Shown here: positions 34,077 to 64,000 of the stretch, one piece after another
Layout of the letters: each line of letters begins with the position of its first letter
Numbering within the stretch: the first letter of the stretch is position 1
Assembly (NCBI GenBank): GCA_001664505.1
Contig: CP011806.1
Location: 4,428,926-4,492,925, forward strand
Source of the DNA: Acidobacteria bacterium Mor1
GTDB lineage: Bacteria; Acidobacteriota; Polarisedimenticolia; Polarisedimenticolales; Polarisedimenticolaceae
Direction: 5' to 3'
DNA: 64,000 nucleotides
Translations under genes and position numbers: made by a program
Notes under the pieces: model-generated
The model's input: only the letters and a program-made list of their open reading frames with translations
The model's database searches: none
What the model was told of the DNA's origin: nothing

Positions 34077-34085
34077 CCAGATTTC

Positions 34086-34796: not shown

Positions 34797-34971
34797 TGGG
34801 GACCTCCGAGCGGATTGTAGGCGAGGGTTCGCCGAAGCTTGCTCCCCCTGAAGAGAAGCAACCGGTTGCCCGGGTTTCGGCCGAATCGGACGCTGTCGAA
34901 CGGGATCGGGACAACCGATCGAACTTGTCGTATATCCTTCGATGTCATTTCCACATGAACCGGGGGGATCC

Positions 34972-48805: not shown

Positions 48806-51800
48806 TCAGGGGCAGGCGGTGCCCGGCTCGATGCGCAGCGCAGCCCAACCCTGGTCGGCCTTGGAGCCGTCAGGGTTGACCACCCGCACGTAGTGCGCGT
48901 TCCAACTGTCCGGGTCGAACAGGCCCGTCTGGTTTTCGGTCGTCACGTTCTGCAGGAAGTCCAGTTCGGTGATTCCGACCATGGTTCCCGGGAACTGGTT
49001 CTGGTCGATGCGCCCGGCCATCAGCCGCAGGAACAGCAACGCCTCCATTTCGGCCGCGGTCTCCCAGATGATATGGCCGTCGGCGTCCTCCTCGACGGTC
49101 GGGTGGATCGGAAGCTCCAGCAGCCGCATCTGCACCTGGCCGACATCCTCGGGGCCGAGGGTGGTGATCGGCGGGCCGTTGTTCGGGTCGTCCTGCACCC
49201 AGAGGTGCAATTGAGCGCCGTGCTGGATGTTCTTGCCCGAGACGCGGAAACGCCGGGCCGGTTCGTGGCGCAGCTCGCACAGCCCGTAGTCTTCGTTCGA
49301 GGGGTTGTTGAGCAGGCCGTGCTGGTACAGCCGCACCGTGTGGCCGTGGGTGCCGTTGAAGCCGGGCGCCCCGTTGTTGTCCACCAGGTTGGTCAGGCTC
49401 GGAACGTCCCGGTAGGCGGTGTTGGTCACCATCGGCAGTAGCTCGATGGCGGCCGGATCGCCGACCAGGCGTGGTGCGTCCCCCTTGGGCACCGCGACCC
49501 TGCGCTCACTTCCCAGCGGGACCGCGAGCAGCACCAGCCGTTCCCGGGGAGAGGTGAGCAGGCCGAGCAGCTGAGTCTCGGTGAACGCGGCTCCGCTGGG
49601 CTCCTCGCGGAAGACGCCGGGATGGACCGAGAGGTCGTACCAGAAGCCCCGGGCGCCGGCGCCGAGGAACGCCTGGACGGCGTAGCCGGCGTTGGCCAGT
49701 TCCGCCTGCTCCCGCATGTCCTGGAGCGCGTCCATGGTCTCGGTGGATCCGGAGTTGCCGGTGGTCACCGTGTGGGTCCGGCCGACCATCGGGCCGGTGC
49801 CGGTATCGAACTCCTGAACGAACTGGTTCAGCCGCAGGACGTTGTCGCAGTCTCCAGGCTGGCCGCCGCCGCAGAGCGGGCCGAAGAAGTTCAGGTTGAA
49901 GGCGTTCATCGATGCGGTGCCGTTGAAGTCCGCCGAACGGGAGATGTCGAGCCCGGTGTGCAGCACTCCTTCGTAGCCGGTGATCGCCGACTCCCAGGGA
50001 CGGGAATCGCCGTCGCGGTCGAGGCGCGCCTCCTTCTGGAACAGCAGCCGCAGTGCGGCGGTCTCGATCGGCTGCGACGGCGCGCGTACCAGCGGCGGCT
50101 GGGGCAACGGGTTGTGCGGATCGACGCCGGGGAAGTCCTCGGTCATCACGTTGTCGCTGCCTTCGGGGAAGGCGTGGCAGCCGACACAGGCCCGGCCGAT
50201 GTCCGCGGCTGCGGTGGTGTAGATCTTGAGGCCGGCGAGGGCGCCGGTGCCCGAGACCGACTGGGTCGTGTCGTTGTCGTCCGGGTCGCCGAGGGTGCCG
50301 CTGTGCACCCGTTCACGCGGTTGTTTCGGGTTCGGCGGGTAATGCACCGAGTTGATGAACTCCTCGAACTGTTCCATCTCCGGCGTGGGCAGCGGTTCAT
50401 CGGCGCCGAGTAGCGATTCGAAGGCCCCCTGGAAGGCAACGAAGGTCTCACGGTCGCCACGCCAGTGATACGGCGCGTTGGTGAACAGGTCCTGGTCGTC
50501 GGGACCGACCTCCCAGTTGAGCAGGCCCTGGAGCGACTGGGTCACCATGAACGACTTGTCCGCCGGGAACACGCCGTTGGCGAAACCGTCGTTGGGCATC
50601 AGTTCGCGGGGAATCGGCAGATCGCCGGTGCTGGGGTCTCCGAGGTCCCAGGCGAGGCCGTCGGTGCGGCCGTCGGTGTGGCAGCTCTCGCAGGTCACCT
50701 TGCCGTTGCCCGAGAGTTTGGCGTCGTAGAGGAAACGCCGCCCGTCGGTGATGTAGTCCGGCGTCGGGTCGGCACTGAGATCGAAGCTGTCGACCACCGT
50801 CTCGGCAACCGGGTCGATGATCGTGATCGAGTTGTCGACGCGGTTGAGCACGTAGAGCCGTTCGCCCGGATCCCCGGCAGAACCACTGGCGTCCTTGAGC
50901 GCCAGGCCGCGGGGGCCGGCGATCGGCGCGTCGACCGGCGAGACGTTGATGCGCCGGATCTTCCAGTTGATCGGGGCCTGGGCCGTGGGCACGATCACGC
51001 CGATGCGGTCACTGCTCATGGCGGTGAAGAACACCTTGCTCACCGAACCCCCGTTCTCGTAGGGCACCACCGAGGTCAGTCGCGCCAGGGACTTGTTCTT
51101 GCCGAAGGGCCCGGTAGTCGGTAGCGGTTCTGCTTCGGCGTCGAGGGGGGCCGAGGTCGCGTTGCGCTCGATCGGTTGCGCGAGTTTGCGCAGGTTGACG
51201 TCCCGGCCGCGGATGGTCGGGTTGCCGGAGCAGAGGTTCTTGACCTCCCAGATCATGTGTTTGAAGAACCCTGTGTTGGCCGCGGCGACGTTGGCCTCGT
51301 CGAACAGCTCGGTGTTCCGGGCCATTCCGCCGACGACGTAGAGCGTATCGTCGGAGGCGAAGGTCATCTCGGCATTGGTCGATCCGAGGCCGCCCAGGGT
51401 GCCGAGCACGCCGGTCGTCAGGTGCTCGCTGTACAGGTCGAAGTCGTAGCGCACCGTGTTGCCCCCCTTGTGGCCCAGAACCCACAGGGTGTCGCAGGCG
51501 ATGGCGGGGGTGCGCGGCTCCTTGATCGCGATGTCGTCGAGCTGGGTATCGAAGTCGAGGTCCGCGCCTGACGGTACCGCCAGGTCGATCAAGTCCGAGT
51601 CCATGGCGATCGGTTGCAGCGTCCGGGCGTGATACTTGCCCAGGGCGTCCAGGGTCATGTGGGTCACGAACAGCACGGGCGTCAGGGTGCCCTCGACGTC
51701 GATCTCGGCGAACGCCATGTGCAGCGGCTCGTCGGTCACCTGGGCGGTGCGGTCGAGGGTCACGCTCAGCCGGCCGGAATCGCCGGGTGCCAGATGCACC

Positions 51801-52132
51801 GACGTGATCGAATCGCCGAGGAAGTTGGCCACGTAGGCCCGATCCATTTCGGGGACCCACGTCACCGACACCGGCTCCAGACCGGTACGCACCCGGCTGA
51901 CGAGCCGGCTCGAAACCGGAATCGTCTCGTCGGTGTCCCAGATCTCGAGCGAGTTGTCCGGCGTGTTGACCGCCAGGATGTAGTCGTGGCCTCCGATCCG
52001 TGCGACCTCGATCGGGTGGACCTGTGGGCTCTCGACGTTGTAGTAGTCCCCGCGTCCCTGGGCGAAAACCAGCCCCGGCATCGCGGTGAACAGCAGCAAT
52101 AGAACCAGCGCGAACGCGCGACGAAGTCTCAT
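48806..52132 (-). CDS. Secreted propeller-dihaem cytochrome, paralogue of the 25567-28620 gene
   Basis: ATG 52132 (GGGGGA 8 bases upstream) gives 1108 residues. A signal peptide ending VFAQ is followed by YVTN-type repeats with the same opening as the paralogue (VESPQVHPIEVARI, ILAVNTPDNSLEIWD). The cytochrome part has CESCH (481-485) in CESCHTDGRTDGLAWDLG and CVGCH (649-653) in CVGCHAFPEGSDN, the same spacing order as the paralogue. The C-terminal ~330 residues are different and lack the YLVRGRN module. Periplasmic dihaem redox activity is inferred. The gene lies downstream of the minus-arm subtilisin but a strong hairpin terminator intervenes. Confidence 0.85.
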   Translation of the reverse strand: MRLRRAFALVLLLLFTAMPGLVFAQGRGDYYNVESPQVHPIEVARIGGHDYILAVNTPDNSLEIWDTDETIPVSSRLVSRVRTGLEPVSVTWVPEMDRAYVANFLGDSITSVHLAPGDSGRLSVTLDRTAQVTDEPLHMAFAEIDVEGTLTPVLFVTHMTLDALGKYHARTLQPIAMDSDLIDLAVPSGADLDFDTQLDDIAIKEPRTPAIACDTLWVLGHKGGNTVRYDFDLYSEHLTTGVLGTLGGLGSTNAEMTFASDDTLYVVGGMARNTELFDEANVAAANTGFFKHMIWEVKNLCSGNPTIRGRDVNLRKLAQPIERNATSAPLDAEAEPLPTTGPFGKNKSLARLTSVVPYENGGSVSKVFFTAMSSDRIGVIVPTAQAPINWKIRRINVSPVDAPIAGPRGLALKDASGSAGDPGERLYVLNRVDNSITIIDPVAETVVDSFDLSADPTPDYITDGRRFLYDAKLSGNGKVTCESCHTDGRTDGLAWDLGDPSTGDLPIPRELMPNDGFANGVFPADKSFMVTQSLQGLLNWEVGPDDQDLFTNAPYHWRGDRETFVAFQGAFESLLGADEPLPTPEMEQFEEFINSVHYPPNPKQPRERVHSGTLGDPDDNDTTQSVSGTGALAGLKIYTTAAADIGRACVGCHAFPEGSDNVMTEDFPGVDPHNPLPQPPLVRAPSQPIETAALRLLFQKEARLDRDGDSRPWESAITGYEGVLHTGLDISRSADFNGTASMNAFNLNFFGPLCGGGQPGDCDNVLRLNQFVQEFDTGTGPMVGRTHTVTTGNSGSTETMDALQDMREQAELANAGYAVQAFLGAGARGFWYDLSVHPGVFREEPSGAAFTETQLLGLLTSPRERLVLLAVPLGSERRVAVPKGDAPRLVGDPAAIELLPMVTNTAYRDVPSLTNLVDNNGAPGFNGTHGHTVRLYQHGLLNNPSNEDYGLCELRHEPARRFRVSGKNIQHGAQLHLWVQDDPNNGPPITTLGPEDVGQVQMRLLELPIHPTVEEDADGHIIWETAAEMEALLFLRLMAGRIDQNQFPGTMVGITELDFLQNVTTENQTGLFDPDSWNAHYVRVVNPDGSKADQGWAALRIEPGTACP

Positions 52133-52320: not shown

Positions 52321-53952
52321 TCAGGGTGCAGGAATCGTGATCGGCGTCGAGCTCCAGAAGCAGGCCCACGGACTCAATGCGCAGTCGACCTGGGGGTCGG
52401 TCTTGACCTGATACCAGAACGAAGGCTGGGTGCCGACCTTGAGCAAGGGGCCCCATCCGGGCAGGACCAGTTCGTTGATCGCGGCGTCGCGGATGTCCTG
52501 GAGGACTTGCGGAGGCAGCGCCAGCGGGTAGAACTGCTGATCGACGCGCAGCATCACCGAGTCGAGGATCTGCCCTTGGGGCAGGGGAGCCGACTGGGAC
52601 AGGTTGAGGCTCATGTCGTTGCCGCTGCCTGCGCCGCCCCCTTGACCGGAGCCGTTGCCCGATGCCTCGCAGGGCACGCAGGGGTCCGACTCGGGGGTGG
52701 GGTGGGTCTCGCTGCTGTAGGTGACCAGGCTGGGGGTTTCCGGCTGTTCCTCCGGGTCCGGCGGAGGAGTGCCCTGGCTCGAGCCGCTGCGGCCCGAGGC
52801 CCAGCAGCCGGTGCTGTTGCCTCCGGACAGACCGTCGAACAGCCGGTCGATCTCCGCGTTGCAGAGCTTGTACGGACGGCGTCCCTCGGAGAGTACGGTG
52901 CACTGCAGCGCCTCGTGCTCCCAGGGCACCCAGGTGTCCCGGGAGATCGGGTCGATGCGGGGATCGTGCTCCTGAAGGAATGCCATCCAGCCGGTCAGCA
53001 TCGCCGCCGAGTAGGAGGACCCTGCCGGCGCGGGCCAGTCGCCGATGCAGAGGCCGTTGCCGGGGATCAGGGCGTTGGGACCCGCCGGTGTTTCCCAGGC
53101 GCCCCCGAGCTGCTTCTCGCTGAAGTACCGGTTGTTGTTCAGCATTCCGGCCGAGGCGACGTTTTCCAGCGCCGCCGGGAACAGCGTGATCTGGTGATTG
53201 CCCGCCGCGGCGATGAAGTCCACGCCCATGCCGCGCAGGTACTGGATGACCTTCGCCACCTGGCACGCCGCCTGATTCACGTCGCAGGCGGTCGGGGTGC
53301 CCGGGTCACGGGTCTCGTAGGTCCGGCCGAAGCTCATGTTGACCACGGTCGGCAGCAGCTGGCCGTCGGCATCCACGCTCTCGGCCACGCTGCAAAGCCG
53401 GGCCAGCAGGTGGAAGTCGTTGACCTCCGTACCGAGGGGATCCAGCTCCTCATCGTCCATGGCCGCGAGCAAGACCTCGGTTTGAGAGCCGACGATGTCG
53501 CCGATCAGCTTGACCACGCTGGCGCCGTGGCCGTCGTCGTAGTCGATGGCCACCACGCGCCGGGTGATCCGGGGTGCCGGTCCGGGCTCCGGTTCCGGCT
53601 CGGCGCCGTCATCGCCGTCGTCGCCGAAGGGGTGCTGGGTCGGCGTCATGCTGTAGACCTTCATGTCGAGCCGTTTCGGAACGACAGGGAAGGGTTGACG
53701 TCCGCGCAGGGGCTTCGGATAGGAACTCGGGTTCTCCTGGCCGGCCGCCGCTGCGTCGCAGGCTCCCGGCGGTACCGTCGTTCCGAAGGTGAACGTCCCG
53801 TAGTCACCGCAGGGGATGGTGAAGTCGGTGGCTTCCGCGGCGCAGGTCGGGTCGACCAGCGACCATTCGATCTCGGCGTTTGCCGCCGAGCCCGCCAACA
53901 GCGCCGGCACCAATGCCAGCGCCGGCAAGAGCCGATGGTTGAGCTTACTCAT
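52321..53952 (-). CDS. Divergent secreted S8 (subtilisin-fold) protease
   Basis: ATG 53952 follows GAGGTGACCC. The 543-residue protein has a signal peptide (about 1-26) and a Cys-containing pro-like region. The S8 order is kept but contracted: Asp137 in VVAIDYDD, His142 in GHGASVVKLI only five residues later, the central VVNMSFG strand, AAAGNH (Asn252) and the nucleophile motif GSSYSAA (Ser313). Normal subtilisins have about 24-30 residues between Asp and His, so the loop between them is missing. A Pro/Glu-rich stretch and later a Gly/Ser-rich linker with CVPC follow. It is the last gene of the minus arm and overlaps the previous one by 8 bases. Confidence 0.8.
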   Translation of the reverse strand: MSKLNHRLLPALALVPALLAGSAANAEIEWSLVDPTCAAEATDFTIPCGDYGTFTFGTTVPPGACDAAAAGQENPSSYPKPLRGRQPFPVVPKRLDMKVYSMTPTQHPFGDDGDDGAEPEPEPGPAPRITRRVVAIDYDDGHGASVVKLIGDIVGSQTEVLLAAMDDEELDPLGTEVNDFHLLARLCSVAESVDADGQLLPTVVNMSFGRTYETRDPGTPTACDVNQAACQVAKVIQYLRGMGVDFIAAAGNHQITLFPAALENVASAGMLNNNRYFSEKQLGGAWETPAGPNALIPGNGLCIGDWPAPAGSSYSAAMLTGWMAFLQEHDPRIDPISRDTWVPWEHEALQCTVLSEGRRPYKLCNAEIDRLFDGLSGGNSTGCWASGRSGSSQGTPPPDPEEQPETPSLVTYSSETHPTPESDPCVPCEASGNGSGQGGGAGSGNDMSLNLSQSAPLPQGQILDSVMLRVDQQFYPLALPPQVLQDIRDAAINELVLPGWGPLLKVGTQPSFWYQVKTDPQVDCALSPWACFWSSTPITIPAP

Positions 53953-54763
53953 GGGTCACCTCGCGTCGCTCGCTCCCGTTGCCCGCGGGAAGAATGGTGA
54001 GCGTCTTGGGGATGGTTGTGCCGTTGGAATCGGGGAAAAGAGCCCGCTGGGGGGATCGGTTCGCCGGAAGATCGACGGCGGCGGGAAGTTCGCCGTCGTA
54101 GGTCGCCGCGACGATCAACTCGTGGGTGCCCTTTTCGCCTCCGGCGAAGCGATGGGCCGGCCCGCTGAAGATCGCGGTGCCGCGGCCGAGTTCGACGTCG
54201 AGCCCCGGGTCGATCCGCATCAGGCGCCCGGGGTCGACCCGGTAGAGCGCGAAGAGCATGCCGGCCCGGGGAGCCTGCATCGGCTCGACGGTGACCTCGA
54301 CCGACGTATCCGGATACGCTGCCGCCATGCGTTCCCCCGCCCTCTCGGCGGCCATCCCCTGAACCTGAACCGCGAAACTCAGGTCTGCGGGGAACGGCTG
54401 GCTCCGTTGGCTCCAGGCAAACAGGCCCAGCGGCAGGGCGAGCAGCAGCATGGCCGCGGCGGCCAGCGGAATGCGGCTGCCCGAGCGTCCCGTCGACGCC
54501 TGTTCCGCCGGATAGGGTTGCCCTTCGATGGCGGCTCTGCGCGCCGCCGGTGAGGGCTTCTCGTCGATCACGCCGCCGAGATCCGCCAGACGGCGCCGGG
54601 CGTCGGCGTTGCGGCACAGCAGCGCTTCGATCTGCCGAGTGCTCTCGTCGTCGAGCTGTCCCGCGCGATAGGCCGCGAGGATCTCGTCGTCGAGATCACC
54701 GCGTCGCACGTCGGTGTCGAGCCGTGAGGGCTGCCACAACAGATCGTCATCGGATCGGGTCAT
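53945..54763 (-). CDS. Single-pass anti-sigma-factor-like membrane protein
   Basis: ATG 54763 (AGGAG before it) gives 272 residues. The cytoplasmic N-terminal ~95 residues begin DDDLLWQPSRL and contain LAAYRAGQLDDESTRQIEALLCRNADARRRLADLGG, a helical stretch of the kind found at the start of anti-sigma factors, but without a HxxxCxxC zinc motif. A TM segment spans about 98-117. The periplasmic ~150 residues are beta-rich (FAVQVQGM, MLFALYRVDPGR, HELIVAATYDG). It overlaps the CHAT gene by 4 bases. I infer a membrane regulator of the sigma factor at 57534-58199; its sequence is not close to a known family. Confidence 0.7.
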   Translation of the reverse strand: MTRSDDDLLWQPSRLDTDVRRGDLDDEILAAYRAGQLDDESTRQIEALLCRNADARRRLADLGGVIDEKPSPAARRAAIEGQPYPAEQASTGRSGSRIPLAAAAMLLLALPLGLFAWSQRSQPFPADLSFAVQVQGMAAERAGERMAAAYPDTSVEVTVEPMQAPRAGMLFALYRVDPGRLMRIDPGLDVELGRGTAIFSGPAHRFAGGEKGTHELIVAATYDGELPAAVDLPANRSPQRALFPDSNGTTIPKTLTILPAGNGSERREVTHE

Positions 54764-57537
54764 CGCCTGTCTCCTGCCATCGGAACGGCCGCCACGTTGT
54801 AGGCCAGCCGGCCGCTCCCGGTTTCGGGCGCTTCCGAGGGCTCGCTGCCGCGCAGCAGCAGCAGCGCTCCCCAGGAACTGGGTGCATGTCGTTTCATCAC
54901 GTCGTGTAGGGCCGCGGTGTGGGCCGCGGGGATGTCTCCGGAGAGCGCGAGCTCCCGGTAGAACGCCCCGTTGAACTCCGAGGCCAGGGTTTCGTCGAGG
55001 TCCGCCCGGGCGCCGATCACCCAGCTCGCGCCTCCCTTGATCAGCGAACCGGCCAGGCCGTAGTGGCCGCTGTCTGCCGTGGCCGGGTAGCGGCCGGAGC
55101 CGCAGGCACTGAGGTTGGCGAATTCGAGAGAGGGGCGCAGCCCCGCCAGCCCGGCGGCGGTCAGCCAGCCGTCGGCCAGCACCAGCCGGGTCAGGTCGGG
55201 GAAGGAGGGTTCGTAGGTTGCGTGGGCATCGATATGAACCCAGCGTGCGCCGGTCAGCGCCAGGCGCACCGTCTCGGCCGAAGCGCGAGCTCCCTCGAGC
55301 ACATCCGCATCGGGGAACAGCGTGCGGTATTCGCCGGCCAGCCGGGAGGCCTGGGCGAGATCGCCGGTGGGGTTGACCACGAACAGCGTGCGGTCGGTTT
55401 CGCCCGTGGGTTGCGCGGCACTGCCGGTGTGAGCCGGCACGTTGGCCACCGTCGTGCGGGTCGCGAGCCACTCTCCGGAGTCGGTTTCGAGGGCGGCCAG
55501 CGGGACCTGCTGAAGCGCTCCGTGCAGCGCGAAGCGGGTCACGTCGCCCAGGTCGTCGGTACGGGGAGCCAGGGCCCGGGCCAGGGGCTCGGTCAACCGG
55601 CGCCATTCGGTGGCGTCGACGTCGCGGCGGTCGAGGGCCTTCTCGATCTCGGCAACTCGTTGCGCGAGAGCGTTCCGTTCGAGAGGAGTACGCCGGTAGA
55701 GCGTGGTGCGCTCGCCATCGCGGCGCAGCAGGATCACCTCGTTCTCCACCGGGAATGCGCGATAGTCGGCGATCTCGCCGCCGGTGCCGAGGGCACCGCA
55801 GCCGCTGCGGGATGCGATGGTCGCCTCGAGCCGACTCATCAACGACTGTCGCGCACCCGCTCGCTGACGCTTACGCGCCGGAGAGGCGGGGACGCTGAGC
55901 CGGCTCAGCTCGTCGAGCAGCGCCTGTTCTTCGTCGCTGTCGGTGGCCGAGTCGCAGACCGAGCCGTCCCGGTCCCGCAGGGTCAGGGCGTCGAGCTGTT
56001 CGAGGATCTGCCAGGCCCGGCCGGGGTGGCCCAGCTCCGTGGCGTTCCGGGCGGCACGGTAGAAGTCTTCCGCCCGGCGTCCCGGTCCGAGTTTCATGTT
56101 CCGGTCGGTCGGCCGGGCTGCGTCTCGTTCGTGGTTGGCCAGAGCCGTTTCGAGGGCGCTGCCGGCTGCCTCGAGATCTCCCTGGCGGCGGAGCAGGGCC
56201 GCGGCGCAACTCGCACCCCATGCCGCCAGGCGGGGTTCGCCGGAATCGGCCACGGCGCGGCACTCGTCGAGGGCCTGCTCCGGTTTGCCTGCCGCGGACA
56301 GGTGATCCGAGCGCACCAGCCGGGACCAGAGCGCAAGCCGCCGGGCCTTGAGGCCGTCCTCGCCCGCCTCGGCGAGGCTCCGCTCGAGCAACGGGCCGGG
56401 GTCGCGGCCGAGACGCGCTTCGATGTACGCGAGGTTCATCAAGATGTTGGCCCGCTCCGCAGCGCCCAGCGCATTCGAGTTCGCATCGAGGGCGCTCCGC
56501 AACAGGCCCTCTGCCTCGTCCAGAGCAAGGTGGTCGGTCGACGGATCCTGGGCGATCAACCAGCTCAGGGTGATCTGGGCGGCCGGGAGATGCCGGTTGT
56601 CGAAGCCGGCTTCGCGGCTGCGATCCAGCATGCGGCCTAGCCGTTCCCGGGCCGGCTGCTCGGCACCGATCCGAAACAGCATGCCCGCCTGGCGGTTGGC
56701 CACCGCCAGGATTCCCGAGTCGGCGATCCGTGAGTAGTGCGCTTCGGCGTGTCCCAGGTGTTCCCAGGCTTCGCCGGGGCCGGCGTCCCGCTCCATGGCC
56801 AGGTTGGCTCGCTCGAGGGCGACGATGGCGGCGGACTCGCTGGCCGCAGGATGGTTGATCCAGTCGGGTAGCGTGGCGAGCAGAGAGCCGGCTTCGCCCA
56901 GAGCCGCTTCGGTGCCTTGCTGGCGCAGGAAGTAGACCGCCATCAGGTCGAAGCGCACGCCGAGCAGCGGATAACCCGCGTCCTCGGCGCGATCGCCGAG
57001 GTCGCGTAGCTGCGCCGCCATCTCGAGGTGGTCCACGCCGCTCCGCAATGCGGGCAAGCGTTGCTGCCACAGTTCGGAGAAGGTCGTCGTATCCGGCTCG
57101 AACATGATCGGCCGGCAGGGAAGGTCCTGACGGCGCCCGTCGTAGACATCCTCGATGGAGCCGCAGACCTCCTGGATGCCGGCGGTCTTGATGCTGCCCA
57201 GCGGTACGCCGTAGCAAACGGTGCTGCCGAAGCGGACCGCAGGAGGCTTCGATTCCGCCGGGGCTGCGTCGCCGCCGATATGTAGCCGGGCTTGCCACTG
57301 GCTGGTGTCGACCGAGGGGCGGGTTTCGATGCAGAGGTCCAGCATGTTCTCGTTGCCGATCACCTTGGGCATCAGGGATCCGTCGGCGGTGAACGATGCA
57401 TCGCGGTGGCCGCGGAAGGTCCAGGTCGCATCCTCGAGCAGATCGTTTCCCGGCGCAGGCGCACAGGCCTGCATCAGCAGCAGGAGCGCTGCCCACATCC
57501 CCGCCTGTCGACAGGTTCGATGGGGAGCATGGCTCAC
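54760..57537 (-). CDS. CHAT-domain (caspase-like) protein, probably membrane-attached
   Basis: The GTG at 57537 shares a 4-base overlap (GTGA) with the sigma stop codon; the next residues (CRQAGMWAALLLLMQACAPAPG) look like a lipoprotein signal. The 925-residue product has a long helical repeat region (about 140-700, TPR-like, e.g. ALDECRAVADSGEPRLAAWGASCAAALLRRQGDLEAAGSAL) and a C-terminal CHAT domain (about 690-910). The CHAT catalytic pair is visible: His772 in HIDAHATYE and Cys812 in NLSACGSG. CHAT proteins are cysteine proteases related to caspases. It is the second gene of the minus arm. Confidence 0.85.
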   Translation of the reverse strand: MSHAPHRTCRQAGMWAALLLLMQACAPAPGNDLLEDATWTFRGHRDASFTADGSLMPKVIGNENMLDLCIETRPSVDTSQWQARLHIGGDAAPAESKPPAVRFGSTVCYGVPLGSIKTAGIQEVCGSIEDVYDGRRQDLPCRPIMFEPDTTTFSELWQQRLPALRSGVDHLEMAAQLRDLGDRAEDAGYPLLGVRFDLMAVYFLRQQGTEAALGEAGSLLATLPDWINHPAASESAAIVALERANLAMERDAGPGEAWEHLGHAEAHYSRIADSGILAVANRQAGMLFRIGAEQPARERLGRMLDRSREAGFDNRHLPAAQITLSWLIAQDPSTDHLALDEAEGLLRSALDANSNALGAAERANILMNLAYIEARLGRDPGPLLERSLAEAGEDGLKARRLALWSRLVRSDHLSAAGKPEQALDECRAVADSGEPRLAAWGASCAAALLRRQGDLEAAGSALETALANHERDAARPTDRNMKLGPGRRAEDFYRAARNATELGHPGRAWQILEQLDALTLRDRDGSVCDSATDSDEEQALLDELSRLSVPASPARKRQRAGARQSLMSRLEATIASRSGCGALGTGGEIADYRAFPVENEVILLRRDGERTTLYRRTPLERNALAQRVAEIEKALDRRDVDATEWRRLTEPLARALAPRTDDLGDVTRFALHGALQQVPLAALETDSGEWLATRTTVANVPAHTGSAAQPTGETDRTLFVVNPTGDLAQASRLAGEYRTLFPDADVLEGARASAETVRLALTGARWVHIDAHATYEPSFPDLTRLVLADGWLTAAGLAGLRPSLEFANLSACGSGRYPATADSGHYGLAGSLIKGGASWVIGARADLDETLASEFNGAFYRELALSGDIPAAHTAALHDVMKRHAPSSWGALLLLRGSEPSEAPETGSGRLAYNVAAVPMAGDRR

Positions 57538-58199
57538 AGGCCGAGCTTCCTCGCGCAACTCTCGATCGTCTGGTTGAGCGACAGCTTCAGCTTGTAGGTC
57601 GCCTTGCGGGACCAGCCGGTCGCCTGGGAGATCTCTTCGGGGGTCAGCCCGTCGACGAAGCGCATCTTGTAGTAGAGGTAGACCCGTGCGTTGCCGCGAC
57701 GCAGGCAGGCGTCGAGGCGCACCAGGGTGTCCTTGTCCAGGTTGCGCTGTTCGGCGTCTTCGACACCGGGGCGTTGATCCGCGCCGAGGAGCGGAAGCGG
57801 ACGGAAGCGGCGCCGTGAGCGGCGCCGGTTGCTCGCGATGCCGCAGGCGAGGTTCCAGAAGAAGCACTCCAGCTTGCTGTCGGTTTGCGAGGCGGGGGGA
57901 GTGCGCGTCACGAAACTGCGCAGGACACGCGCGTCGTCCTGGAAGAACAAAACGAAGGCATCGTGCAGCAGTTCTTCCGCATCGAGTCCGGCGGACTGGT
58001 AGCGGCTTCGCAGTCTGCGCAACAGCTTCGGCGCGAAGCGGTCGTAGAGCCAACCCTTGGAGGCCGTGCAGCCGTCGAGGACCTGCTCCAACATCTCGGG
58101 AAGTTCGGAGCGCAAGCCCGGCCGGCGCAGAGCGTCGTGCAGGTTCCCGCCGATCCCGCCCTCGGCCGCGTGCTGCCTCGCGTCGTCCTTTTCTCGCAT
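57534..58199 (-). CDS. ECF sigma factor, first gene of the minus arm
   Basis: ATG 58199 gives 221 residues. Region 2 is visible as GWLYDRFAPKLLRRLRSRYQS and DAEELLHDAFVLFFQDDARVLRSF with KLECFFWNLACGIASNRRR; region 4 as VYLYYKMRFVDGLTPEEISQATGWSRKATYKLKLSLNQTIE. The FWNLACGIASNRRR and LTPEEIS features suit the ECF group. It leads the minus arm: ECF sigma, CHAT protein, anti-sigma-like protein and subtilisin, all overlapping by 4-8 bases. The start is 324 bases from the divergent sigma gene at 58524. Confidence 0.9.
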   Translation of the reverse strand: MREKDDARQHAAEGGIGGNLHDALRRPGLRSELPEMLEQVLDGCTASKGWLYDRFAPKLLRRLRSRYQSAGLDAEELLHDAFVLFFQDDARVLRSFVTRTPPASQTDSKLECFFWNLACGIASNRRRSRRRFRPLPLLGADQRPGVEDAEQRNLDKDTLVRLDACLRRGNARVYLYYKMRFVDGLTPEEISQATGWSRKATYKLKLSLNQTIESCARKLGL

Positions 58200-58523
58200 T
58201 GTCTATTCACCCGCCGTTGAGTCGCTGAGACAGAAAGTGTACGTCGCTGTTCTTTTCGGGGGGGAAGTTTTCCGGCCTCCGGACTCCAGAAAAAGTGAGG
58301 GAAAAGCGGGTCTTTGACGCGCCGATTTCGTGCGCCCAAAAGTGGGCGTGACAGGGGGCCGGTTTGTCCCGCGTGCGGGAAGTCGACCCCTGATCGCATC
58401 GCCGGCGGCTCTCGGAGGCCGGCTTTACTTTCCCGACCAACCACCGAAGAATGGCGCGGTGGCTCCTTCCATCAGTATCCGTAGGTTGAGTGACCGGCCC
58501 GGCCCGCGGGGCCCGGTGCGGCG
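58200..58523. promoter_or_regulatory. Shared control region of the two ECF-CHAT arms
   Basis: This 324-base gap holds no gene. It contains a perfect inverted repeat CGCCCA-AAAG-TGGGCG (58333-58348), GAAAAAGTGAGGGA (58289-58302), whose GTGAGGGA core recurs at 52269-52276 upstream of the second dihaem cytochrome gene, and a run of seven Gs (58259-58265). Promoters for both sigma genes should lie here; no canonical -35/-10 pair stands out, consistent with ECF-type promoters. Confidence 0.55.
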
Positions 58524-59120
58524 GTGAACGACGCGCAACGCATCGAAGCGGTCCTGGCCGGCGACCGCGCCGCTGCCGAAGCGTTGATCGAAGACGTCGA
58601 GCGACGGGTGCTCGCGATTGCTCGCGGCCAGTTCCGGCTTTCTCCCGAAGAGAGTGAAGACGTGTTGCTGTCCCTCTGCGAGAAATTGTGGCGGGATGAC
58701 GCCGCAGCATTGCGACAGTGGCAAGGCCGCGGTCCCTTCGCGGCCTATGTCTCGGTGATCGCCAGCCGTGCGTGCCTGATGTACCTGCGTGAGAAGAAGC
58801 GACGCACCCCGGAGGTTGCGGGACTCGAGCTCGATCAAATCGCCGGCGAGCAGGCAGCCACCAGCGACGTGGAACGGAACGAAGAACGCGAGCTGTTGGC
58901 TCGCGGATTGGAGCGCCTGTCGGAACGGGACCGGCACCTGATCCGCCTGCGGTTTCTCGAGGAGCGGGACTACGAGGACTTGACCCGGGAACTGGGGATT
59001 TCTTACGGCGCGGCGCGCAAGGGAGTGCACAGCGCAGTGACCCGGCTGCGCCGCGCTCTGGCCGATCTCGAGCCTTCCTGGTTCAAGGCGGTAACAGGCC
59101 GCCGGGGAGAGCATCAGTAG
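58524..59120 (+). CDS. ECF sigma factor, first gene of the plus arm
   Basis: GTG 58524 gives 198 residues. Region 2 (VLAIARGQFRLSPEESEDVLLSLCEKLWRDDAAALRQW) and the PFAAYVSVIASRACLMYLREKKR segment, then region 4 (LSERDRHLIRLRFLEERDYEDLTRELGISYGAARKGVHSAVTRLRRAL), are typical of ECF sigma factors. No ribosome binding site is clear. It is followed 31 bases later by a zinc-finger anti-sigma gene. It mirrors the minus-arm sigma factor across the shared control region, but the two proteins are not close copies. Confidence 0.9.
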   Translation: MNDAQRIEAVLAGDRAAAEALIEDVERRVLAIARGQFRLSPEESEDVLLSLCEKLWRDDAAALRQWQGRGPFAAYVSVIASRACLMYLREKKRRTPEVAGLELDQIAGEQAATSDVERNEERELLARGLERLSERDRHLIRLRFLEERDYEDLTRELGISYGAARKGVHSAVTRLRRALADLEPSWFKAVTGRRGEHQ

Positions 59121-59151
59121 CCATGGACGGCAGAAGTACGAGGAAAGGGCG

Positions 59152-60252
59152 ATGAGTCGCGAGTGCATCCGATTTGCAGAATGGGTCGGCCGGGAGACGG
59201 TCGCCGATGCCGGGGAGCGCTACGGGTATCTGCGCCATGCGGTCGGCTGCGAGACCTGCCGTCGGGAGTTGACCGAGGCGGTCGCCCTCGGATCTCTCCT
59301 GTCCGGGCCTGCTTCCGGACCCCGGGGAGAGGTCGACCCGGCCGTCCTTGCCGAGAGTCTTTCGTCGGGCCGGGTGCCGGCGGAATCGCTCCACAGTGTC
59401 GAGAGCCTGGAATGGACCCTGGCGTCCATCGAGTCCCTCGGCCCCGAGGTGGAGCAGACGGCAGCAGAGGGGACCTACGAAGCATCGGCGACTACGCGCC
59501 GCCGTCTTCGACGTCTGGCGGTCGATGACCGATCCCGGGGCGGCGGGAGCCGCTGGGTCCCGGCACTCGCGGCGGCCGCCGCAATGATCCTCGCCGTGCT
59601 CTTCCTCTGGAATGCACGTCAGTCCGGCGGGGCCCGGCTGGCCGGCCTCGAAGACTGGCGCGAACCCTACGCGGCCGCCCTGGACGGTCGCGGCTTCGCA
59701 GGCGAGTCCCTGTTCGAGATCCCGGCAGGGGATGGCTCGGTGGTGCGGAGCGGCCCTGCCGGCGAGCTTTCGCTGGAGCCGCTGGAGCCTCGATGGGAGG
59801 CGGTCGCAGCCACCCCGGCCGCCCTGGTCGTCGAAGTCCGGGGGCAGGGGAGCCCACGGCGGCTCGAGGTGCTGCTGGTCGACGCCGCGAGAGAGCTGGT
59901 CTGGAGCGGAGAGCAGGAGGTCGCCGGGGGACCGCTGCGGGTTTCCACCGGGGATCTGCAGCTGGTGCCCGGAGAACGTTATTTCTGGCGGGTCCAGGCC
60001 GATCTCGGTGGAGATTTGATCGCCTCTCCCTTCGTCGGATTCGAGCTTCTTGCAGAGGATCGAGCACGGGAGTATGAAAGGTTGCGGGAGCTAAGCCGCG
60101 AGGAGCCGTTGATGGCCGCGGTGATCAGCGATCGATTCGGCCTGTACGGCGAGGCGGTCCGCTTCCTCGAGGCGTCCAGTGCATCTCCGGAGGTGGTCGA
60201 AGCGGGCCTGGCCGCGCTGGCGAAGAAGCGGGGAGTCGTCCCTGCGCCCTAG
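59152..60252 (+). CDS. Anti-sigma factor with ZAS zinc motif and periplasmic beta domain
   Basis: ATG 59152 gives 366 residues. The N-terminal part has the zinc-associated anti-sigma motif His29-x3-Cys33-x2-Cys36 (RHAVGCETC) with Cys5 upstream, which is the hallmark of many ECF anti-sigma factors. A TM segment (about 140-160) is followed by a periplasmic region with VVEVRGQGSPRRLEVLLVDAARELVW and ERYFWRVQADLGGDL, an Ig/FN3-like beta domain. The next gene starts inside its 3' end (74-base overlap). It is expected to hold the sigma factor at the membrane until a signal or protease releases it. Confidence 0.85.
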   Translation: MSRECIRFAEWVGRETVADAGERYGYLRHAVGCETCRRELTEAVALGSLLSGPASGPRGEVDPAVLAESLSSGRVPAESLHSVESLEWTLASIESLGPEVEQTAAEGTYEASATTRRRLRRLAVDDRSRGGGSRWVPALAAAAAMILAVLFLWNARQSGGARLAGLEDWREPYAAALDGRGFAGESLFEIPAGDGSVVRSGPAGELSLEPLEPRWEAVAATPAALVVEVRGQGSPRRLEVLLVDAARELVWSGEQEVAGGPLRVSTGDLQLVPGERYFWRVQADLGGDLIASPFVGFELLAEDRAREYERLRELSREEPLMAAVISDRFGLYGEAVRFLEASSASPEVVEAGLAALAKKRGVVPAP

Positions 60253-62662
60253 CATCGCGCTTCGGGCGGGGCTGCTGATCGGTCTGATCCTTTGCTGCGG
60301 CGCGCTGCCGGCGGCAGCCGAAGGGACGGAGTCCGATGAGGAGCGGCGCAAGGCCGCACGGGCCCTGGCCAAACTCGCCTCGGGCTACAGCAGGGCCGGG
60401 GATCACCAACTCGCCTTCCAGACCTACGCGAAGGCCCTCGCCGCTGCCCGCGAGCTGGGCGACGGCGTGCTCGAAGGGCGGCTCCTGCGAGACAGGGCCC
60501 AGACCTTCCGCCGCCAGCAGGCCTGGGACGACGCCAACCGCGACCTGCTCGCCGCCGTGGAGGCTTTCGAACGCGCCGGCGAGCCTGCACGCGCCGCCGA
60601 GGCCCGCCTTCAAACGGCAACCCGGCTCGCCTCGGAACAGGGGTTGGACGCGGCGCTGGACTTCGTCGACGGCCAGATGGCGATTCTGCGTGAGCTGGAC
60701 GCGAGGAAGTACCTGGCTCGCGCGGTGAACCTGCGGGCGCGGCTCCTGGTCAATGCCGGGCGGATGAAAGATGCCCTTGCGGTCTTCGACGCATCCGACC
60801 TCGACATGACCGGCCTCGAAGGCGAGGAGTTGACCGGCCTCGGCCTGCGCGCCTACGCGGAACAACAGAGCGGCCGGTTGGAAGCCGCCCGCGGTTCCTA
60901 TCTCAAGGTGCTGGAGCGCTCCTTCCGCAGAGGCGATCACCATGGTGTGGCCTACGCCTTTTGCAACCTGGGCGACGTGGAGGACGAGCTCGGGCTCACC
61001 GGCCTCGCCGAGGAGCGGCTCGATGCCGCCATCGACCTGCTCGACGAGTTGCGCACCCGGGTCGCCGGCGGCGCGATGGAGCGCACGCGATTTCTCGACG
61101 TCCAGATCAGCGCCTACCACGGCAAGTTGATCAAGTTGATCGACTCCCGTTCTCCCGACCTCGCCTTCGAGCTGGCCGAGGGCTTCCATGCCCGCTCTTT
61201 CCTCGAGGTGGTCGAGGGAGCAGACCGGTCCGGCGGTTCCTCCGGTGCCAGGGAGCAAGCGGTCGGCTCCGAGGAGCAGGCGGCGTTCCGCGAGTTGATG
61301 GCGCTCCAGGAGCTGGAGCTGCGGGAGGGGCTCGACGCCGCCGGCCAGGAGCGCTTGCGGGTCGCCGAGCGGCGTTGGAGCACCCTTGTCCGCGAGGCGC
61401 GCCGGTTGAATCAGGATCCGGTGCCGACGGTGGTGCCCCAATCGATCCCGGAGATTCGCGCCGCGCTTCCCGAGGGCACCGGCTTTCTCAAGTACTGGGT
61501 TCATCCCAAGCGCACGGTGTACTGGCTGGTCACCCGCGACGGCATCAAGCTGACCCAGGTGCCGATTGCGTCATCGGAACTGGAGGCCCGGCTCGAACGC
61601 TATCTGGCGCCGCTGCGCAGCCTCTCCCGGGCGGAAGACGTCGCGCTGCGGGGAAAGGTGCAGGAGCACCTGGAAGCCGGGCACGAGCTCTACCGGCTGT
61701 TGATGGAGCCGCTCTCCCGCGACCTGTCCGAGCTGGACCACCTGATCGTCAACCCTCACGACATGCTGTGGCACCTGCCCTTCGGTGCGCTGGTTCGGGA
61801 ATTGCCGGGCGAGGCCGAAGAGGGGCAGCCCCGTCCGCTGTTTCACGAGTACGCCGCGGCGGGCTACATGGCCGACGCAGTGGACTTCAGCTACGTCCAC
61901 TCCGCGACGGTGTGGGCCACGCTCCGCGCTCGTTCATCGCCGGCAGCCGGCCTGTTGGCCATCGCGCCGTCCCTCGAGCAATCGGAAGAGGCATTCCGAG
62001 CCGGCTGGGCACTCGACCCCTTGCCCTCGGCGCAGCCCGAGGCCACCGCACTGGCCGAGCGCTGGCCCGGGGGGCGTGCGTTGGTCGGGGCCGCGGCGAC
62101 CGAGTCGGCGGTCAAGGAGCTCCTGGCCGGCCGCCGGTTGGTTCATTTCGCCACCCACGGCCGGCTGAGCCTGGAGCATCCGGAGCTGTCGGCGGTGATG
62201 CTGAGGCCGGGGGCCGGCGAGGACGGCCTGTTGCAGGCACACGAGCTGGCGGGATTGGGCTGCGCTGCGGAACTGGTCAGCCTGGCTGCCTGCGACACCG
62301 CCATGGGGCAGCTCAGCCGCGGAGAGGGCCTGGTCGGCCTCGGCCGCTCCTTCCTGCTGGCGGGGGCGCGCAACGTGCTGGTGTCGCTGTGGCGCATCGA
62401 CGATGAGGCGACTTCGAGGGTGATGGACGCGTTCTACGGAAATGTGGCCGGCGGGTTGCCGCTGGACACCGCCCTGGGACGTGCTCAGAAGGGGCTTCAG
62501 GAGGGGGTGAGCCGGCGAACGGTGGTCCTCGACGGCGAGGAGGTCAGCTACGCCCACCCCTATTTCTGGGCGTCGTTCGTCTTGCTCGGCGGAAGTGCCA
62601 CCGATGTGAACCGGCCCGTCGGCATCGCGGCGGCGGCGCGAACCCCTCCCGCGCAACGCTGA
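60179..62662 (+). CDS. TPR-CHAT protein with complete His/Cys pair
   Basis: GTG 60179 (GAGG just upstream) gives 827 residues and overlaps the anti-sigma gene by 74 bases. An N-terminal Arg-rich stretch and a hydrophobic segment (about 29-47, GLLIGLILCCGALPAAA) are followed by tetratricopeptide-like repeats (about 60-300: SRAGDHQLAFQTYAKALAAARELG) and a linker to a CHAT domain (about 430-810) with His660 in HFATHGRL and Cys705 in SLAACDTAM. The canonical HG and ACDT contexts indicate an active cysteine protease fold. It resembles TPR-CHAT proteins such as the caspase-like Csx29, but is membrane-targeted and has no CRISPR genes beside it. Confidence 0.88.
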   Translation: MHLRRWSKRAWPRWRRSGESSLRPSIALRAGLLIGLILCCGALPAAAEGTESDEERRKAARALAKLASGYSRAGDHQLAFQTYAKALAAARELGDGVLEGRLLRDRAQTFRRQQAWDDANRDLLAAVEAFERAGEPARAAEARLQTATRLASEQGLDAALDFVDGQMAILRELDARKYLARAVNLRARLLVNAGRMKDALAVFDASDLDMTGLEGEELTGLGLRAYAEQQSGRLEAARGSYLKVLERSFRRGDHHGVAYAFCNLGDVEDELGLTGLAEERLDAAIDLLDELRTRVAGGAMERTRFLDVQISAYHGKLIKLIDSRSPDLAFELAEGFHARSFLEVVEGADRSGGSSGAREQAVGSEEQAAFRELMALQELELREGLDAAGQERLRVAERRWSTLVREARRLNQDPVPTVVPQSIPEIRAALPEGTGFLKYWVHPKRTVYWLVTRDGIKLTQVPIASSELEARLERYLAPLRSLSRAEDVALRGKVQEHLEAGHELYRLLMEPLSRDLSELDHLIVNPHDMLWHLPFGALVRELPGEAEEGQPRPLFHEYAAAGYMADAVDFSYVHSATVWATLRARSSPAAGLLAIAPSLEQSEEAFRAGWALDPLPSAQPEATALAERWPGGRALVGAAATESAVKELLAGRRLVHFATHGRLSLEHPELSAVMLRPGAGEDGLLQAHELAGLGCAAELVSLAACDTAMGQLSRGEGLVGLGRSFLLAGARNVLVSLWRIDDEATSRVMDAFYGNVAGGLPLDTALGRAQKGLQEGVSRRTVVLDGEEVSYAHPYFWASFVLLGGSATDVNRPVGIAAAARTPPAQR

Positions 62663-62765
62663 GTTCGGTCGTGCCGCCGGAATCGGCGTACACTCCACAC
62701 GAAATCTATGCGACAAGAGCAAGAACCGGCGGGCTCGTGCCGCCGGCTCCTTGCGGGGGGGATCC

Positions 62766-64000
62766 TTGAAAATGTTCACGCGTTGGGGTCTGGCCTGCCT
62801 GATGGGCCTCCTGGTGGCGGCGGGAGCCGTCGCTCAGCCGGTCGACGACGGCCGGATCAATGTCTCGGTCGTGGAACAGGGCGGCCGCTACGAGATATGG
62901 GTGACCTCCCGGGACCTGGATGGTGCGGCGCAACGGAAGCGGCTTCACGTCACGCCCCGAGCGGTCGTGGCCCTGGAAAGCGGGGGCGCCGCGACCGAAG
63001 CGCCCTTCGTCAACTGGAGCGAGGCGGGCGAGCGGTTTTCGACCTTCAGCCGCGACGCCGGGGCGACCTGGACCGAGCCGCGGCCTCTGGATAACCGGCT
63101 GCGATTGCTGAGCGGGGCCGTTGCCCCCGGCGAGCCGCTGCCGGCTCCAGTGCAGACGCTTTCGGCCGCCGAGGATCACCGGCTGTTCATCGTGCAGTTC
63201 CGCGGCGTGAGTTTGCCCGAGTGGCGGGCGGTGCTCGAGTCGTCGGGTGTCGAGGTGCTGCGCTTCTTCCCGATGCAGGCGCATCTCGTGCGGATGGATC
63301 CTGCCCGGACCGGCTCGGTGCGCGCCCTCGATTTCGTCCAGCGGGTCGAGCCCTACCATCCCTCCTACCGCTTGGAGCCGTTTCTGATCGACTGGCTGGC
63401 TCAGGAGGCGGCGGTCGAGCCGCAGCGCGTCCGTGTGCGCGCCATGGCCTTCGATTGGGGCCCGGCAGGCAAGGGGCGGATCGCAAGCGACGCCCGGGCC
63501 CTCGGCGCCACCGTCGACAGCGAGTACCCCAACGGCCATGTCGTCGAGCTGACCGTCGATCGAGACCAGCTCCGCCGGCTGGCGGGTCACGACGACACCC
63601 TGTGGATCGATCGCTGGGTCCCGCGTGAAACCGATATGGATCTGATTCGCGAGGACTCCGGCGCCGACTACGTCGAGTCGATCGAGGGCTACTGCGGCCA
63701 GGGCGTGCGCGGCGAGGTGTTGGACAACGGCTTCGATCTGGATCACCAGGACTTCGACGGCGTGGTCCTGCACGGTAGCGGCAACAACCTCGACTTCTTC
63801 GCCCAGAGCCACGGCAGCAGCTCCTACGGCGTCGTCTTCGGCAACGGAAATCGGGACGGCGACGGTGACGGCTCGGCGACGGGCCACATGCCCTGCAATG
63901 AGCAGGGGATCGCGTCGGACTACAGCTTCCTCGGGGATCGGTTCGCCCACACCCAGGAACTGAAAGAGGCGCCGTTCTTCGCCTCGTTCCAGACCAACTC
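62766..64000 (+). CDS. Secreted subtilisin-family (S8) protease, 3' end cut by window
   Basis: TTG 62766 is preferred because GGGGGGATCC sits directly before it, exactly as before the ATG of the paralogue at 34972, and it puts Lys2 ahead of the signal peptide; ATG 62772 is the alternative. The visible 411 codons align in order with the paralogue: FIVQFRGVSLPEWRAVLES, then WIDRWVPRETDMDLIRED, then Asp320 (EVLDNGF) and His349 (QSHGSSS). The nucleophile Ser lies beyond the window. The frame is open at the end. It closes the plus arm of the ECF-CHAT cluster, 103 bases after the CHAT gene. Confidence 0.88.
   Translation, partial: MKMFTRWGLACLMGLLVAAGAVAQPVDDGRINVSVVEQGGRYEIWVTSRDLDGAAQRKRLHVTPRAVVALESGGAATEAPFVNWSEAGERFSTFSRDAGATWTEPRPLDNRLRLLSGAVAPGEPLPAPVQTLSAAEDHRLFIVQFRGVSLPEWRAVLESSGVEVLRFFPMQAHLVRMDPARTGSVRALDFVQRVEPYHPSYRLEPFLIDWLAQEAAVEPQRVRVRAMAFDWGPAGKGRIASDARALGATVDSEYPNGHVVELTVDRDQLRRLAGHDDTLWIDRWVPRETDMDLIREDSGADYVESIEGYCGQGVRGEVLDNGFDLDHQDFDGVVLHGSGNNLDFFAQSHGSSSYGVVFGNGNRDGDGDGSATGHMPCNEQGIASDYSFLGDRFAHTQELKEAPFFASFQTN

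What the first reader, a model, noticed from the sequence alone, without database searches (positions are those of the whole stretch)
52321..64000. Divergent twin operons: ECF sigma, anti-sigma-like protein, CHAT protease and subtilisin in each arm
Seen: minus arm (58199 to 52321) and plus arm (58524 to the window end) carry the same four gene types around one 324-bp control region, with 4-8-base overlaps in the minus arm. Both CHAT proteins keep a His/Cys pair (His772/Cys812 and His660/Cys705). Known: in type III-E CRISPR loci a TPR-CHAT protease acts on an anti-sigma-like protein to release an ECF sigma factor. Inference: here a protease cascade (CHAT, then anti-sigma release, then subtilisin output) may form a stand-alone regulatory or cell-death system.
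Basis: partly seen in the sequence, partly recalled or inferred. Interest (0 to 1): 0.85.

Follow-up and report, generated by a model that had tools for sequence, protein, structure and literature searches.

The report
Exported caspase-like proteases with sigma factors
Two neighbouring gene sets in this bacterium each pair a gene switch (sigma factor) and its membrane-bound lock with a caspase-like protease and a subtilisin, and the first set recurs intact in other members of the phylum, which suggests that these bacteria may use exported caspase-like enzymes to turn an outside signal into gene expression.

Summary
The genes are real and the "always scattered" refutation fails. The minus arm is a four-gene operon (ECF sigma, CHAT, one-TM anti-sigma-like protein, compact subtilase). 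It recurs co-linearly eight times: four copies in this genome, one in a same-order genome, one in a Thermoanaerobaculia MAG, two in a more distant Acidobacteriota genome. CHAT His772/Cys812 and the S8 Asp137/His142/Asn252/Ser313 are invariant in all eight.

The arms are not twins. Gene order differs and the proteins match only at superfamily level. The plus arm keeps sigma, anti-sigma and CHAT in a distant relative (G178), but not the subtilase.

18 of 21 CHAT loci in this genome lie within three genes of an ECF sigma. CHATs beside a one-TM partner are exported (26/33 by a strict rule); those beside a soluble partner are not (0/7). The Csx29-like idea is therefore plausible but moved to the periplasm: CHAT as site-1 protease on the anti-sigma's outer domain. 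Cleavage is untested, the subtilase's role is open, and no defence or cell-death context was found. ECF-CHAT-subtilase neighbourhoods are already published for group ECF54, so this is a new variant of a known kind.

The parts
57534..58199 (-). ECF-type sigma factor of the minus arm (221 aa)
   Evidence: TIGR02937 E=2e-5; 38-50% identical to seven orthologs/paralogs that all open the same four-gene cassette
54760..57537 (-). CHAT protein of the minus arm, 925 aa from GTG; lipobox LMQAC (Cys25), middle part with weak TPR similarity, C-terminal CHAT with His772 and Cys812
   Evidence: Pfam CHAT E=2.3e-25; His772, Cys812 and Asp770 invariant in eight cassettes; GTGA overlap with sigma stop; weak matches of the middle part to TPR structures
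53945..54763 (-). one-TM anti-sigma-like protein (272 aa): N-terminal helices, TM about 96-118, periplasmic Ig-like domain about 127-260
   Evidence: AlphaFold2 mean pLDDT 70.7; Ig-like match Z 9.6, rmsd 2.5, 109 residues; ATGA overlap with CHAT stop in all four copies of this genome
52321..53952 (-). exported compact subtilase (543 aa), Asp137/His142/Asn252/Ser313, Asp and His only 5 residues apart; C-terminal domain with PESDPCVPC motif
   Evidence: Pfam S8 E=2.5e-5; residues invariant in eight; AF2 model: pro-Tk-subtilisin Z 18.9, subtilisin BPN' 2.5 A over 185 residues
58200..58523 (.). 324-bp divergent intergenic region between the two sigma genes
   Evidence: sequence read; no shared promoter motif was recognised by eye among eight cassettes
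58524..59120 (+). ECF sigma factor of the plus arm (198 aa)
   Evidence: TIGR02937 E=1.1e-22, Sigma70_r2/r4 above cut-off
59152..60252 (+). one-TM anti-sigma-like protein of the plus arm (366 aa), TM about 134-150
   Evidence: hydropathy; homologs beside chatP-type genes in G178 (L204) and G385 (L205); no Pfam family
60179..62662 (+). TPR-CHAT protein of the plus arm (827 aa), signal-like segment LLIGLILCCGALPAAA, His660/Cys705
   Evidence: Pfam CHAT E=1e-62, TPR_12 E=7e-13; dyad positions
62772..64000 (+). exported subtilase of the plus arm, 859 aa in the genome (ends at genome 4494276); triad motifs near residues 318, 347 and 517, and a P-domain
   Evidence: Pfam S8 E=1.3e-12, P_proprotein E=1.2e-4; motif positions

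Best explanation
Each arm is an envelope-sensing gene switch. The ECF sigma factor is held at the inner membrane by a one-TM anti-sigma protein whose outer domain (Ig-like in the minus arm) lies in the periplasm. The exported CHAT protein (a lipoprotein in the minus arm) senses a periplasmic ligand or a damaged or cleaved protein with its N-terminal (TPR-type) part and, when activated, cuts the outer domain of the anti-sigma (site-1 cut). A candidate site is after the invariant Arg141 in a flexible loop about 20 residues past the TM. Ordinary site-2 and cytosolic proteolysis would then free the sigma factor, which transcribes its own operon and targets. The exported subtilase most likely belongs to the same periplasmic chain, either upstream (making or clipping what CHAT senses, or trimming CHAT) or as a regulated product. 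Shown: genes, order conservation, invariant catalytic residues, predicted subtilisin fold, correlation of CHAT export with a TM partner. Inferred: anti-sigma activity, CHAT cleavage, direction of the cascade, signal.
For: Eight co-linear minus-type cassettes in four genera (order and overlaps in 24). CHAT dyad and S8 catalytic residues invariant in all eight; 75 of 78 CHATs keep His/Cys (73). CHAT-ECF linkage: 18 of 21 CHAT loci in this genome within 3 genes of an ECF (35, 51, 78); by coordinates and Pfam hits alone 11 of 21 within 5 kb versus 2.4 expected, 0 of 5000 random draws; 17 of 41 CHATs sampled from other genomes of the phylum. CHATs with a one-TM partner are exported in 26/33 by a strict rule and most of the other 7 by eye; with a soluble partner 0/7 (Fisher p=2e-4, not corrected for relatedness); the rule fires on 0/52 sigma genes. 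Anti-sigma model: N-terminal helices, TM, Ig-like outer domain. Only Arg141, Arg194 and Gly208 are invariant in the outer half of eight anti-sigmas; Arg141 borders a segment with pLDDT under 50. The one solitary minus-type CHAT without any partner (G253) has lost both His and Cys (65, 87). Precedent for a CHAT cutting a sigma inhibitor: Csx29/Csx30/CASP-sigma (PMC10028731).
Against: No cleavage, binding or transcription data. Anti-sigma identity lacks a significant family match. Linkage could also mean that CHAT is a target of the sigma factor. G367 holds a minus-type CHAT with intact dyad but no sigma or anti-sigma beside it, and next to it an S8 remnant without the protease core. Co-variation among the four proteins was weak; only anti-sigma versus S8 reached nominal significance (29 of 2000, six comparisons). 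Arg141 could be structural.
Confidence: 0.5

Rival explanations
1. CHAT and subtilase are outputs, not parts of the switch: the sigma/anti-sigma pair senses the signal in the usual way (for example by conformational change or by DegS/RseP-type proteases) and the operon delivers exported proteases as its product.
For: Operon order sigma first with translational coupling fits autoregulated co-expression; G367 has a CHAT with an S8 remnant and no sigma or anti-sigma beside it; in the plus-type relatives only sigma, anti-sigma and CHAT recur, not the S8.
Against: Export of CHAT tracks the topology of the partner across 40 loci, and CHAT sits between sigma and anti-sigma in all eight cassettes; the solitary CHAT with no partners lost its catalytic residues. 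None of this excludes an output role.
Confidence: 0.3
2. The subtilase is the initiator or site-1 protease and CHAT the sensor/adaptor or second protease; the reader's order (CHAT, then anti-sigma, then subtilisin) is reversed.
For: Anti-sigma and S8 divergence correlate best among the four proteins (Spearman 0.72, nominal 29/2000); exported S8 with predicted subtilisin fold and full triad.
Against: 12 of 18 ECF-linked CHATs in this genome have no same-strand S8 within three genes, so CHAT loci exist without it; G367 keeps an S8 remnant without its protease core.
Confidence: 0.15
3. Stand-alone cell-death or anti-phage system, a CRISPR-free relative of the type III-E protease arm.
For: Same types of protein (CHAT, sigma inhibitor, ECF sigma) as in the Cas7-11/Csx29 locus (PMC10028731).
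Against: No PADLOC family in either arm beyond a generic subtilase model; neighbours are an efflux pump, TetR, SpoU and Mla genes, not a defence island; no CRISPR-like direct repeats in 40000-64000; CHAT is predicted exported; many paralogous loci in one genome fit signalling better.
Confidence: 0.05

Closest known systems
Type III-E CRISPR Csx29 / Csx30 / CASP-sigma (PMC10028731)
   Same: A TPR-CHAT protease (His/Cys dyad H615/C658), a sigma inhibitor and an ECF-like sigma factor in one locus; protease cut of the inhibitor relieves sigma inhibition.
   Different: Csx29 is RNA-guided through Cas7-11 and cuts Csx30, which was purified as a soluble protein; here the CHAT is predicted exported, the partner has one TM, no Cas protein was found nearby, and a subtilase is added.
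ECF sigma group ECF54 neighbourhoods (described in review PMC8999054, citing Casas-Pastor 2021 and Huang 2015)
   Same: CHAT and subtilase genes conserved beside an ECF sigma; regulation by proteolysis proposed. Soluble-type loci found here (ECF, small protein with CarboxypepD_reg-like domain in L183/L184, CHAT, and in most an adjacent S8: L121, L122, L123, L184) look like this group.
   Different: [quoted passage not shown] both window arms carry a one-TM anti-sigma-like protein and exported CHATs. Group assignment of the window sigmas could not be tested.
RseA/DegS/RseP (E. coli sigma-E) regulated intramembrane proteolysis
   Same: One-TM anti-sigma with a periplasmic domain; a periplasmic site-1 protease would start release.
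   Different: The site-1 enzyme would be a caspase-like CHAT lipoprotein instead of a PDZ serine protease; cleavage not shown.
Type III CRISPR CalpL/CalpT/CalpS (from my own knowledge)
   Same: Protease acting on an anti-sigma-like protein to free an ECF-type sigma factor.
   Different: The protease is a Lon-SAVED, cyclic-oligoadenylate-activated enzyme; no CHAT, no export.
QhpE compact subtilisin-like protease (NCBIfam NF049966)
   Same: Short subtilase; weak match of the minus-arm S8 (E=0.03).
   Different: Match far below cut-off; here the Asp-His spacing is five residues and a Cys-motif C-terminal domain is present.

Membership tests
CHAT (Pfam PF12770) caspase-like proteases | CHAT domain match with His and Cys of the dyad | tested here: met
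   E=2.3e-25 and 1e-62; His772/Cys812 and His660/Cys705; 75/78 in a broad alignment
Subtilase S8 (PF00082) | Asp/His/Ser triad, oxyanion Asn and subtilisin fold | tested here: met
   residues invariant in eight minus-type S8s; predicted fold Z 18.9 / 2.5 A over 185 residues; plus-arm triad motifs
ECF sigma factors | sigma regions 2 and 4 only, about 200 aa | tested here: met
   plus arm TIGR02937 1e-22; minus arm 2e-5, weaker than the curated cut-off but supported by orthologs
Transmembrane anti-sigma factors | N-terminal sigma-binding domain, one TM, outer domain, gene beside the sigma gene | tested here: inconclusive
   topology and position fit; no significant family match, NCBIfam anti-sigma E=0.0047 below cut-off, PDB top hit 3hug_B E=0.63; binding not testable
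Type III-E CRISPR protease (Csx29) systems | Cas7-11 and CRISPR array in the locus | tested here: not met
   neighbouring proteins scanned without Cas families; no array-like repeats in 40000-64000
Type III-E CRISPR protease (Csx29) systems | cytosolic CHAT and soluble sigma inhibitor | tested here: not met
   lipobox or signal-like N-termini and one-TM partner, by sequence prediction
ECF54 | CHAT, subtilase and carboxypeptidase-type genes beside the sigma gene | tested here: inconclusive
   CHAT and subtilase present; no carboxypeptidase-type gene found in either arm
ECF54 | no anti-sigma factor encoded nearby | tested here: inconclusive
   a one-TM anti-sigma-like protein is present in both arms, but its anti-sigma activity is unproven
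ECF54 | match to the ECF54 sequence model | not testable with these tools
   model and reference sequences not held; PMC7826278 not in the library
RseA-type regulated intramembrane proteolysis | sequential site-1 and site-2 cleavage of the anti-sigma | not testable with these tools
   needs biochemistry

The most novel reading that the evidence does not exclude
Acidobacteriota carry a large, paralogously expanded class of signalling loci in which exported caspase-like CHAT proteases are the dedicated periplasmic site-1 proteases of ECF sigma/anti-sigma pairs (18 of 21 CHAT genes in one genome), with a subtype that adds a compact subtilase to make a two-protease chain.
Probability: 0.35. Interest if true: 0.78.

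Novelty: new variant of a known kind. Interest (0 to 1): 0.6.

Why it matters
If true, the CHAT/anti-sigma/sigma logic known from type III-E CRISPR would be one special, cytosolic case of a much broader bacterial use of caspase-like proteases as signal transducers. It would name a new kind of site-1 protease for ECF sigma factors, give a function to many of the uncharacterised CHAT genes of Acidobacteriota, and supply compact, testable protease-substrate pairs (with a predicted Arg site).

Tried and rejected
Recent-duplication reading of the two arms: rejected, no similarity except in the CHAT domain. Defence/cell-death reading: no support. The genome-contig scan with the CHAT alignment gave one strong relative, MAG Co_bin.310 (L102), and one weak one (L103); this MAG shares its contig length with genome G367 and is counted once. 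Plus arm as a conserved four-gene unit: only sigma, anti-sigma and CHAT recur in G178; G385 shows anti-sigma and CHAT; the gene after CHAT in G178 is a beta-helix/FG-GAP protein. Shared ECF promoter motif upstream of the eight sigma genes: nothing convincing by eye. Co-variation of the four proteins: identities saturated at about 21-50%, inconclusive except anti-sigma versus S8. Weak S8 hits in G060 and G061 and G253 were not beside a CHAT and were dropped. Paper on ECF re-classification not held. The fold search says little about the N-terminal helices of the anti-sigma, since mainly residues 127-261 were covered.
Full report
WHAT IS THERE. The window is bases 4428926-4492925 of a single-contig 5.985-Mb genome. 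Minus-type relatives lie in a same-order genome and in a record named Thermoanaerobaculia bacterium, so the host is most likely an Acidobacteriota of that kind; its own name is not given by the tools. Minus arm: ECF sigma (221 aa), CHAT (925 aa from a GTG), anti-sigma-like protein (272 aa), S8 (543 aa), chained by 4-, 4- and 8-base overlaps. Plus arm: ECF sigma (198 aa), anti-sigma-like protein (366 aa), TPR-CHAT (827 aa) and S8 (859 aa, completed outside the window).

THE ARMS ARE NOT TWINS. BLAST of the minus-arm proteins against all loci fetched from this genome hits the plus arm only in the CHAT domain (31% over 135 aa); the sigmas, anti-sigmas and S8s do not find each other. The gene order differs. 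The pair is two members of a larger family of loci that happen to be back to back.

THE MINUS ARM IS A CONSERVED CASSETTE. Three further co-linear copies exist in the same genome, at about 2370347-2376152, 2396036-2401749 and 4416559-4422217, with the proteins about 30-44% identical to their counterparts and the CHAT stop overlapping the anti-sigma start by 4 bases in all four. Outside, complete co-linear cassettes were found in G084 (same order, L116), in MAG Co_bin.310 (L102, the genome held as G367) and twice in G385 (L180, L181); G195 has sigma-CHAT and S8 on separate short contigs. In a sample of 396 genomes of the phylum nine carry a match to this CHAT profile at E<=1e-30 (three of the nine match only in the CHAT domain, and only the top two candidates per genome were scored, so copies are undercounted). 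Across eight cassettes the CHAT His and Cys, and the S8 Asp137, His142, Asn252 and Ser313, are invariant.

TWO DECAYED CASES. G253 holds a solitary CHAT of this family, without sigma, anti-sigma or S8 next to it, and both dyad residues are gone. G367 holds a second CHAT with intact dyad next to an S8 remnant that keeps flanking domains but lacks the protease core. The first fits loss of function when the partners are lost; the second shows that S8 protease activity is not always needed beside a CHAT.

THE PLUS ARM. Its anti-sigma has recognisable relatives in only a few genomes. In G178 the order sigma, anti-sigma, CHAT is kept (CHAT E=2e-89, sigma 6e-31, anti-sigma 2e-12), but the next gene is a beta-helix/FG-GAP protein instead of a subtilase; in G385 the anti-sigma and CHAT are kept. 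So the plus-arm subtilase looks accessory.

A BROADER PATTERN. The genome has 21 CHAT domains, 71 Sigma70_r2 hits and 33 S8 hits at E<=1e-3. By coordinates alone 11 of 21 CHATs lie within 5 kb of a Sigma70_r2 hit against 2.4 expected (0 of 5000 random draws), and 5 of 21 within 5 kb of an S8 against 1.1 expected (23 of 5000). With local models 18 of 21 CHATs are within three genes of an ECF sigma, and these loci also hold a 200-370-aa protein with a single TM. Among 41 CHATs sampled from other genomes of the phylum without regard to neighbours, 17 have an ECF sigma within three genes. A second architecture in other genomes has ECF sigma, a 150-200-aa soluble protein, a CHAT without signal and, in most, an S8 next (L121, L122, L123, L184; L183 without an adjacent same-strand S8); in L183 and, weakly, L184 the small protein carries a CarboxypepD_reg-like domain. 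That resembles the published ECF54 neighbourhood of carboxypeptidase, subtilase and CHAT genes (PMC8999054).

TOPOLOGY IS THE MAIN NEW CLUE. A simple signal-peptide rule, which fires on none of 52 sigma genes, of 33 CHATs exported when the locus has a one-TM partner and 0 of 7 when the partner is soluble (Fisher p=2e-4). Most of the seven exceptions have signal peptides or lipoboxes once the start codon is read by eye. All eight minus-type CHATs show a lipobox-like N-terminus on reading the open frame. The loci are related to each other, so the p-value is indicative only; the rule and the gene starts are home-made.

STRUCTURE. The minus-arm S8 model (mean pLDDT 63.5; many core blocks 80-89) matches pro-Tk-subtilisin at Z 18.9 and subtilisin BPN' at 2.5 A over 185 residues, although Asp and His are only five residues apart. 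The anti-sigma model (mean pLDDT 70.7) has short N-terminal helices, a low-confidence TM stretch and an Ig-like outer domain (Z 9.6, 109 residues). In the outer half of eight anti-sigmas only Arg141, Arg194 and Gly208 are invariant; Arg141 follows the first strand and borders a segment with pLDDT under 50, about 20 residues past the TM, in the setting [E/D/S/T]-x-R-[A/S/G/D]. Because several caspase-clan enzymes cut after Arg (own knowledge), this is offered as a candidate cut site, nothing more.

MECHANISM. Best supported is a periplasmic version of protease-released sigma control: exported CHAT senses through its N-terminal part, cuts the outer domain of the anti-sigma, and housekeeping proteases finish the release. 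Csx29 shows that a CHAT can cut a sigma inhibitor (PMC10028731), but there the enzyme is RNA-guided and the inhibitor is not membrane-bound. The main rival is that CHAT and S8 are products of the sigma factor. The data do not decide between them; the export correlation and the decayed G253 copy favour the first. No evidence supports cell death or defence.

VERDICT.

Noticed in passing
48806-52132 (-), and L098:12975-16301 (-): Large exported gene with weak beta-propeller/MauG-type matches directly downstream of the minus arm; a homolog (E=4e-40) lies downstream of the L098 cassette on the opposite strand. Possible target genes.
   Followed up: partly
L099:3750-6848 (-) and L116:13642-16845 (-): Homologous 1030-1070-aa exported proteins with a hydrazine-synthase-alpha-type middle domain (HZS_alpha, E about 1e-9) beside two different minus-type cassettes, downstream in one and upstream in the other.
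   Followed up: partly
L117, L118, L121, L122, L123 (other genomes of the class): CHAT without signal followed by S8 (with ECF and a small soluble protein in front where the contig reaches that far: L121, L122, L123); in L118 and L123 followed by a peptide-binding ABC transporter protein (SBP_bac_5). Looks like ECF54-type loci coupled to oligopeptide uptake.
   Followed up: partly
L179:5981-7189 (-): S8-family relative that has lost the whole protease core but keeps flanking domains and has Cys-rich repeats, divergent from a minus-type CHAT with intact dyad.
   Followed up: partly
L182:8066-10600 (-): Solitary minus-type CHAT in G253 with both catalytic residues replaced.
   Followed up: yes
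31464-38772: Ser/Thr kinase with TPRs and an ECF-type sigma (34086-34766) divergent from a 1249-aa subtilase: another sigma/subtilase pairing in the same window.
   Followed up: no
L097:863-4261, L091:1466-5929, L093:9698-12598: Related large exported proteins (beta-helix in two of them) next to three different CHAT loci of this genome (E=3e-157 and 4e-83).
   Followed up: partly
L092:10625-12259, L094:5647-7212, L090:11307-12866: Exported 520-545-aa proteins with no Pfam family directly upstream of CHAT in three ECF/anti-sigma loci; not compared with each other.
   Followed up: no
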